From the IMG/VR virus record IMGVR_UViG_3300009147_000028, positions 1 through 23,441 of that record: DNA of 23,441 bases, one strand, 5' to 3'. The notes beneath the pieces were generated by a model that made no database searches, was not told the origin of the DNA, and was given only the letters and a program-made list of their open reading frames with translations. This stretch comes from a virus. Both the position numbers and the translations under genes were made by a program. Positions 1,261-2,117 of this stretch are shown one piece after another (the first letter of the stretch is position 1; each line of letters opens with the position of its first letter).

Positions 1261-1436
1261 AGTTTCCCCTTATCTAATTCCATTTGCCCATTGAGGTTCG
1301 AGGCGGGCACCGGATCGCATTTTGGGTTGCTTGGGAACTTCCCCGCGCCCGCCTTTCCCCTATAAAGTATTCCGTACAGCGTCTTGAGAGTACTACGCTA
1401 AAAGCCCAAGATACTCCTTTCGATTGCTGGACGTTG

Positions 1437-1513
1437 TGCGGCGTCAAGGAATTGAACCTTAACGTCTTCCTGTCGAGTTGACAGGCGTGCGACCCAACTT
1501 ACACTATCGCCGC
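1437..1513 (-). tRNA. tRNA-like element with abnormal anticodon loop
   Basis: A cloverleaf can be drawn: acceptor GCGGCGA/ACGCCGC (6 of 7 pairs), TA at positions 8-9, D stem GTGT/GCAC with GG in the loop, anticodon stem CCTGT/ACAGG, T arm TAAGG-TTCAATT-CCTTG, discriminator A. The 7-base anticodon loop CAACTCG lacks the invariant U33, the variable loop is 7 nt, and no CCA is encoded. It could be a degenerate tRNA, or a tRNA mimic inside a longer RNA. I do not assign an amino acid. Confidence 0.42.
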
Positions 1514-1654
1514 GTGTTGCTTAGATTGTTAAAGGTTGTGCGTGTGGAGATGCGCACCCCCTCCCTACTTGTTATATGGTGTCCTCGGCTAGGCCGGGTT
1601 GTTCTCGGTTTACCGCCAAAGTAGGAAAACCAGACGGTACACCTCCATGAGCAT

Positions 1655-1762
1655 AAGCGGGTCATACGTCCGCAATCACCGCTTGTCACCTTGTTAAAGG
1701 TGGGCGGGGAGCATCACTAGCCTCCCCGCCCTGTCGGGTATCGCGCCCGATCTCACCCGCTT
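1655..1762. other. Multi-hairpin domain closed by 8-bp stem
   Basis: AAGCGGGT (1655-1662) pairs perfectly with ACCCGCTT (1755-1762). Between them lie CACCTT-GTTA-AAGGTG (1687-1702), a 9-10 bp GC-only stem GGCGGGGAG/CTCCCCGCC (1703-1711/1722-1730) and TCGGG-TATCGCG-CCCGA (1734-1750). The arrangement is a closed junction with several arms. Because perfect stems read on both strands, orientation rests on the promoter at 2118-2146. Confidence 0.5.
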
Positions 1763-1809
1763 TTGGACACTTGCGGCTGTGTACTGCCCGGAACAGATTT
1801 ATAAAAATG

Positions 1810-1887
1810 TGCCGACGGAGATGGACTCGAACCATCACAACCCGCTCGTCTAAAGGGACGAGGCTCTACCATTGAGCTATCGTGGCA
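1810..1887 (-). tRNA. tRNA-like element with 8-nt anticodon loop
   Basis: The D arm (AGCTCAATGGTAGAGC) and T arm (GATGG-TTCGAGT-CCATC) are canonical. The acceptor stem pairs only if one C is bulged (TGCC/GGCA plus ACG/CGT), two extra bases sit between T stem and acceptor, and the anticodon stem CTCGT/ACGAG encloses an 8-base loop CCCTTTAG. If functional, UUU (Lys) is the likeliest anticodon, but U33 is missing. Discriminator-like A is followed by CA, not CCA. It is more tRNA-like than the other element yet still abnormal. Confidence 0.45.
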
Positions 1888-2117
1888 GGTACGCCAGCTT
1901 GCCGTCTACCAATTGGTTACGAGGCCGTGACTCACAGCCGTCTCGGTCAAGCTAGCGATGTTGCTTTTGGTAAGTTGCTCCTCGTGGGGCTGGGGAGACC
2001 ACCAGCCCTGCGAAGTATTGAGATGAGTTCGATGTAGGTGTGCGATATACTTAGGTTGGTTGATGTTTCAGAGGCTTTTCCCGTAGGTGGGTTAAGTCCT
2101 CTTAGTGCTTATTTTGT

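What the first reader, a model, noticed from the sequence alone, without database searches (positions are those of the whole stretch)
1262..2111. Candidate 850-nt ornate non-coding RNA with tRNA-like inserts
The sequence shows a gene-free stretch behind a TTGACA-17-TACACT leftward promoter, with at least six strong stems, a closed multi-arm domain and two tRNA-like folds. Known GOLLD and ROOL RNAs are large, structured, phage-borne and often next to or around tRNAs. Membership in either, or a new class, is inference.
Basis: partly seen in the sequence, partly recalled or inferred. Interest (0 to 1): 0.85.

Follow-up and report, generated by a model that had tools for sequence, protein, structure and literature searches.

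The report
Structured phage leader RNA with pseudo-tRNAs
A phage of Chloroflexota-type bacteria has an 850-base gene-free stretch that probably yields a heavily folded, untranslated RNA carrying two damaged-looking tRNA copies; it belongs to no known RNA family, and no relative was found, so neither a class nor a function can yet be claimed.

Summary
The observation largely holds. Window 1262-2111 has no gene, lies behind a near-consensus leftward promoter (2146-2118), and the minus strand folds better than all 150 shuffles (z -4.9). The plus strand gives z -3.3 and 20 other 850-nt windows give -2.7 to +3.0. Two tRNA-like elements (1811-1885, 1436-1513) are real: ARAGORN calls both in the region and none in 1000 shuffles. 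Their Rfam scores (28.9 and 28.2 bits) fall just under the cut-off, and their anticodon loops are non-canonical.

GOLLD and ROOL membership is not supported: no such Rfam match appears even at E<=5. No homologue turned up among terminase-related viral contigs, about 800 genome draws from the Chloroflexota/Anaerolineae, phage records or plasmids; only ordinary tRNAs matched TLS1. Covariation therefore cannot be tested. In the two closest relatives examined, a short gap (124-198 nt) holds this position, so the stretch looks acquired.

Best reading: a long structured 5' leader/ncRNA of the leftward immunity-region operon, with two tRNA-derived modules that may be processing sites. It has no terminator before the first gene, and a Cro/CI-type regulator gene lies across the divergent promoter. 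Rivals: a stand-alone ornate RNA of a new class, or a decaying phage tRNA cluster.

The parts
1262..2111 (-). 850-nt gene-free structured stretch, predicted untranslated RNA or leader
   Evidence: z -4.94 minus, -3.28 plus; control windows -2.7 to +3.0; no ORF beyond chance
2118..2146 (-). leftward sigma-70-like promoter TTGACA-17-TACACT
   Evidence: 10 of 12 matches, TG before the second hexamer
2153..2181 (+). divergent rightward promoter TTGACA-17-TATACT in front of the HTH gene
   Evidence: 11 of 12 matches
2118..2181 (.). inverted half-sites AGTGTAACAGAA (2118-2129) and TTCTGTTATACT (2170-2181) over the two -10 boxes; possible shared operator
   Evidence: read from the sequence; operator role is inference
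1811..1885 (-). TLS1, tRNA-like (Lys/Asn-like), abnormal anticodon loop and imperfect acceptor stem
   Evidence: ARAGORN; Rfam tRNA 28.9 bits, cut-off 29; alignment with Chloroflexota tRNA-Lys/Asn
1436..1513 (-). TLS2, tRNA-like (ARAGORN Ser-ACT), 6 of 7 acceptor pairs, canonical T-loop, loop CAACUCG without U33 or a purine at 37
   Evidence: (28.2 bits)
1652..1765 (-). closed multi-arm domain: 8-bp closing helix AAGCGGGU/ACCCGCUU, 10-bp hairpin 1702-1731, 5-bp hairpin 1688-1701
   Evidence: z -6.2; inverted repeats I3 and I4
1886..2012 (-). two long hairpins, 1892-1957 and 1980-2015
   Evidence: z -2.9; pair probabilities 0.92-0.98
1361..1803 (-). predicted long-range helix 1783-1803 with 1361-1380, 18 bp
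   Evidence: p 0.93; not tested by covariation
1422..1677 (-). predicted long-range helix 1666-1677 with 1422-1434, 12 bp, ending beside TLS2
   Evidence: p 0.99; not tested by covariation
1301..1354 (-). 3' hairpin with 10-bp stem, no T run after it, so not an intrinsic terminator
   Evidence: I2; p 0.99; no minus-strand terminator-like site
1045..1260 (-). first ORF of the leftward operon, 71 aa, AAGGGG at 1266-1271 before its ATG
   Evidence: no Pfam match
2202..2435 (+). Cro/CI-type regulator (HTH_26), divergent from the RNA
   Evidence: Pfam 2.4e-12
158..418 (-). second Cro/CI-type regulator (HTH_26), last gene of the leftward group in the window
   Evidence: Pfam 2.3e-12

Best explanation
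The stretch is a long, folded, untranslated RNA made leftward from the promoter at 2146-2118. It is the 5' leader (or a processed piece of the leader) of the phage's leftward immunity-region operon and carries two tRNA-derived modules. Shown here: promoter-like sequence, absence of genes, excess folding mainly on the minus strand, two tRNA-like elements on that strand, no terminator-like site before the first gene, Cro/CI-type regulators on both sides. Inferred: transcription from this promoter; cutting at the tRNA-like modules by host RNase P and tRNA 3' processing enzymes; and a role of the structured leader or its pieces in controlling how much of the leftward operon is expressed, in the manner of phage P4-type immunity leaders (P4 recalled from memory). 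The tRNA-like parts are unlikely to decode codons.
For: Fold excess on the minus strand, z -4.94 against -3.28 on plus, outside the range of 20 control windows, not explained by the tRNA-like parts alone. Near-consensus back-to-back promoters with matching inverted half-sites. Two HTH_26 regulators. No minus-strand terminator-like site in 1-3100, and a ribosome-binding-like AAGGGG directly at the end of the stretch. tRNA-like elements beyond chance but about 17-40 bits below most tRNAs in relative phages. In the two closest relatives examined (L017, L018) the gap at this position is only 124-198 nt, so the long leader is an addition.
Against: No homologue, hence no covariation. No expression data. 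Perfect complementary words are not more frequent than in shuffles, so no P4-like seqA/seqB/seqC pairing was shown. Some excess folding is also present on the plus strand. The leader role rests on context only.
Confidence: 0.42

Rival explanations
1. A stand-alone large ornate RNA of a so far undescribed class that works like GOLLD or ROOL (self-assembling RNA scaffold made by a phage, with tRNAs carried in variable regions).
For: Size of about 850 nt, phage origin, tRNA-like parts within, broad fold excess. GOLLD members often exceed 800 nt, are found in phages near tRNA islands and sometimes hold tRNAs in their linker (PMC12286853).
Against: No GOLLD or ROOL match. No second copy anywhere searched. 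No terminator that would make a separate gene.
Confidence: 0.22
2. A decaying phage tRNA cluster: two tRNA genes losing function, with ordinary spacer, and no RNA-level role of the rest.
For: Both tRNA-like parts score just under the Rfam cut-off and have broken anticodon loops. tRNAs occur in 11 of 50 relative contigs over the cut-off. A tRNA/tmRNA-like cluster with ordinary folding energy exists in relative L043.
Against: z stays at -4.1 without the tRNA-like parts, and the 1652-1765 domain has z -6.2. A strong promoter is kept.
Confidence: 0.25
3. The tRNA-like parts belong to integration: an attachment site, or phage tRNAs that replace a host tRNA broken by integration (tRNA-dependent lysogeny).
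For: Temperate-type regulators. tRNA 3' ends lie beside integrases in relatives L017 and L018. tRNA-dependent lysogeny with a phage tRNA-Lys-TTT is known (PMC10865867), and TLS1 is Lys/Asn-like.
Against: No integrase in the window. A replacement tRNA must decode, and both loops are non-canonical. No long identity to a host tRNA (best 26 of 28 nt).
Confidence: 0.07

Closest known systems
GOLLD RNA
   Same: Large, phage-borne, tRNAs nearby or in the linker (PMC12286853)
   Different: No match to the Rfam model at E<=5
ROOL RNA
   Same: Large, structured, phage-borne, near tRNA islands (PMC12286853)
   Different: No match to the Rfam model at E<=5
Phage-encoded tRNAs (Rfam RF00005)
   Same: Cloverleaf with canonical T-loops, called by ARAGORN
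   Different: 28-29 bits against 46-69 bits for most tRNAs of relative phages; anticodon loops cannot be read as normal
Structured immunity leader of phage P4 (CI RNA; from memory)
   Same: Long untranslated leader of an operon in the immunity region
   Different: No complementary word pairs beyond chance; no sequence link tested

Membership tests
GOLLD | match to the Rfam covariance model (conserved 3' domain) | tested here: not met
   no match at E<=5 in 1000-2250 nor at gathering or E<=0.2 in the window
GOLLD | phage-borne, tRNA in or near the RNA | tested here: met
   virus record, phage genes, two tRNA-like parts
ROOL | match to the Rfam covariance model | tested here: not met
ROOL or GOLLD | self-assembly into an RNA nanocage | not testable with these tools
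   needs cryo-EM or native gels
new structured RNA class | covarying stems in homologues | not testable with these tools
   no homologue found
tRNA (RF00005) | score at or above the gathering cut-off, 29 bits | tested here: not met
   28.9 and 28.2 bits
tRNA (RF00005) | 7-nt anticodon loop with U33 | tested here: not met
   TLS1: stable 6-bp stem with loop CCUUUA, or an 8-nt loop; TLS2: CAACUCG, A at 33
P4-type immunity leader | short RNA complementary to two sites in its own leader | tested here: inconclusive
   complementary words of 9-12 nt not above shuffles

The most novel reading that the evidence does not exclude
A new class of large ornate phage RNA in Chloroflexota phages with two built-in tRNA mimics whose anticodon loops have been altered so that they cannot decode, acting as structural or decoy modules (for example bait for host tRNA-cutting defences).
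Probability: 0.15. Interest if true: 0.75.

Novelty: new variant of a known kind. Interest (0 to 1): 0.36.

Why it matters
If the RNA is real and has relatives, it would add a large structured phage RNA from an almost unstudied host phylum and tie tRNA-derived modules to a phage switch region. As it stands it is a single orphan sequence, which gives a defined target for covariance searches in metagenomes and for 5' end mapping.

Tried and rejected
GOLLD, ROOL and all other Rfam families: no match except tRNA; a D12-methyl hit at 19.9 bits (cut-off 57, E 0.62) is at chance level. Direct repeats flanking the tRNA-like parts are no better than in shuffles. Exact 23-mer of TLS1 in viral contigs: one unrelated hit. 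Relatives by neighbouring proteins (2432-2923; 1045-1260; 2202-2435): none. ParA: three distant matches, not followed. TerL relatives: no similar DNA. A weak match to L043 (E 0.12) is mostly the tRNA itself, and that 948-nt stretch does not fold better than shuffles. Single-sequence covariance models R1 and R2 found only the window; such models have limited reach. Short non-tRNA matches in two Chloroflexota genomes (29-31 nt, L108, L109) show only one piece each and were taken as chance. Excess of unpaired A: uninformative. Skew inflection as an origin signal: cumulative GC skew is lowest near the left end (calculated in 800-base steps), which is weak and was not pursued.

Full report
What the window is. 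The window is a 23,441-base viral record with ParA, a ParB-methyltransferase, terminase, portal, head and tape-measure genes. The nearest terminase relatives in genomes are mostly Anaerolineae and other Chloroflexota MAGs, so a Chloroflexota host is likely. The stretch 1262-2111 lies between a leftward group of small genes (1045-1260, 696-941, 490-714, 158-418) and the rightward genes that start at 2202.

Checking the observation. The leftward promoter TTGACA-17-TACACT is at 2146-2118 and a stronger rightward one at 2153-2181. No gene fits in the stretch: my codon-based caller left it empty (the caller is rough and missed the HNH gene), and its longest open stretch is shorter than in shuffles. 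The 850-nt minus strand folds at -312.3 kcal/mol, z -4.94 against 150 dinucleotide shuffles, and the plus strand at z -3.28. Smaller shuffle sets gave -5.1 and -7.8; the 150-shuffle value is the one to use. Twenty other 850-nt windows gave -2.7 to +3.0. Removing the tRNA-like parts leaves -4.1, and removing the 1652-1765 domain as well leaves -3.2. Against the spread of the control windows the region is about three standard deviations out, and the region was chosen by a reader for its stems, so this is good but not overwhelming evidence.

The tRNA-like parts. ARAGORN calls both and calls none in 1000 shuffles of the region. Rfam scores are 28.9 and 28.2 bits, just under the cut-off of 29; ten of the eleven over-cut-off tRNAs in 50 relative phage contigs score 46-69 bits. 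TLS1 (1811-1885) is closest to Chloroflexota tRNA-Lys(TTT) and tRNA-Asn but has an imperfect acceptor stem, a long variable loop and a loop of 6 or 8 nt. TLS2 (1436-1513) has a good acceptor and T arm, but its loop CAACUCG lacks U33 and a purine at 37. That neither decodes is inference from these features.

Search for relatives. No DNA match in phage records beyond tRNAs, none in plasmids, none in ten terminase-related viral contigs, only tRNA matches and two isolated 29-31-nt matches in 400 Chloroflexota genomes. Single-sequence covariance models of the 1652-1765 domain (R1) and the 1886-2012 hairpins (R2) found only the window in 50 full viral contigs (R1), 396 genomes of the class (R1) and the fetched loci (R1, R2). 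The relatives L017 and L018, which share about 60% of the terminase, have only 198 and 124 nt between the leftward gene and the regulator (ORFs 4872/5071 and 5288/5413), so the stretch is an addition in this phage. Because there is no second sequence, covariation could not be tested at all.

Most likely working. The structured stretch ends at the ribosome-binding-like AAGGGG of the first leftward gene and no minus-strand terminator-like site lies between. The two -10 boxes carry matching inverted half-sites, and Cro/CI-type regulators lie on both sides. A leader RNA of a phage immunity operon with tRNA-derived modules as likely cutting sites is the simplest account; transcription, cutting and control are inferred.

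Comparison with known RNAs. GOLLD and ROOL share size, phage origin and tRNA neighbourhood (PMC12286853) but their models do not match. It may work like them, but it is not filed as a member.

Incidental finding. Two relative contigs encode very short tmRNA-like RNAs, 85 and 78 nt (L035, 53.5 bits, above the cut-off; L043, 32.4 bits, below it), without room for a tag reading frame, whereas Chloroflexota genomes carry tmRNAs of 351-353 nt with a tag such as GERELALAA. This deserves its own study.

Noticed in passing
L035 428-512 (-) and L043 1785-1862 (+): Tag-less mini-tmRNAs of 85 and 78 nt in two phage contigs with related terminases; both Rfam tmRNA matches run from the first to the last model position with most of the middle missing (53.5 bits, over the cut-off; 32.4 bits, below it). 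Host-phylum tmRNAs are 351-353 nt with a tag.
   Followed up: partly
L043 1785-2732: About 950-nt gene-poor stretch with a mini-tmRNA, a good tRNA-Ile(TAT) and two further tRNA-like pieces with long inserts, just upstream of the terminase genes.
   Followed up: partly
window 443-458: Perfect 16-bp palindrome ATAGCACTAGTGCTAT in front of the HTH_26 gene 158-418, a likely operator.
   Followed up: no
window 15946-16575: HNH/endonuclease VII-like gene with codon usage unlike the neighbouring head genes, likely a recent insert.
   Followed up: no
L017 about 6032 (-), L018 about 6339 (-): tRNA 3' ends beside tyrosine-recombinase genes in the two closest terminase relatives, likely attachment sites.
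   Followed up: no
L037 2118-2188 (-): Hammerhead type II ribozyme-like match, 35.2 bits (cut-off 37), in a relative phage contig.
   Followed up: no
window 8440-9696: ParB-like N-terminal part fused to a DNA methyltransferase, in a phage that also has ParA.
   Followed up: no
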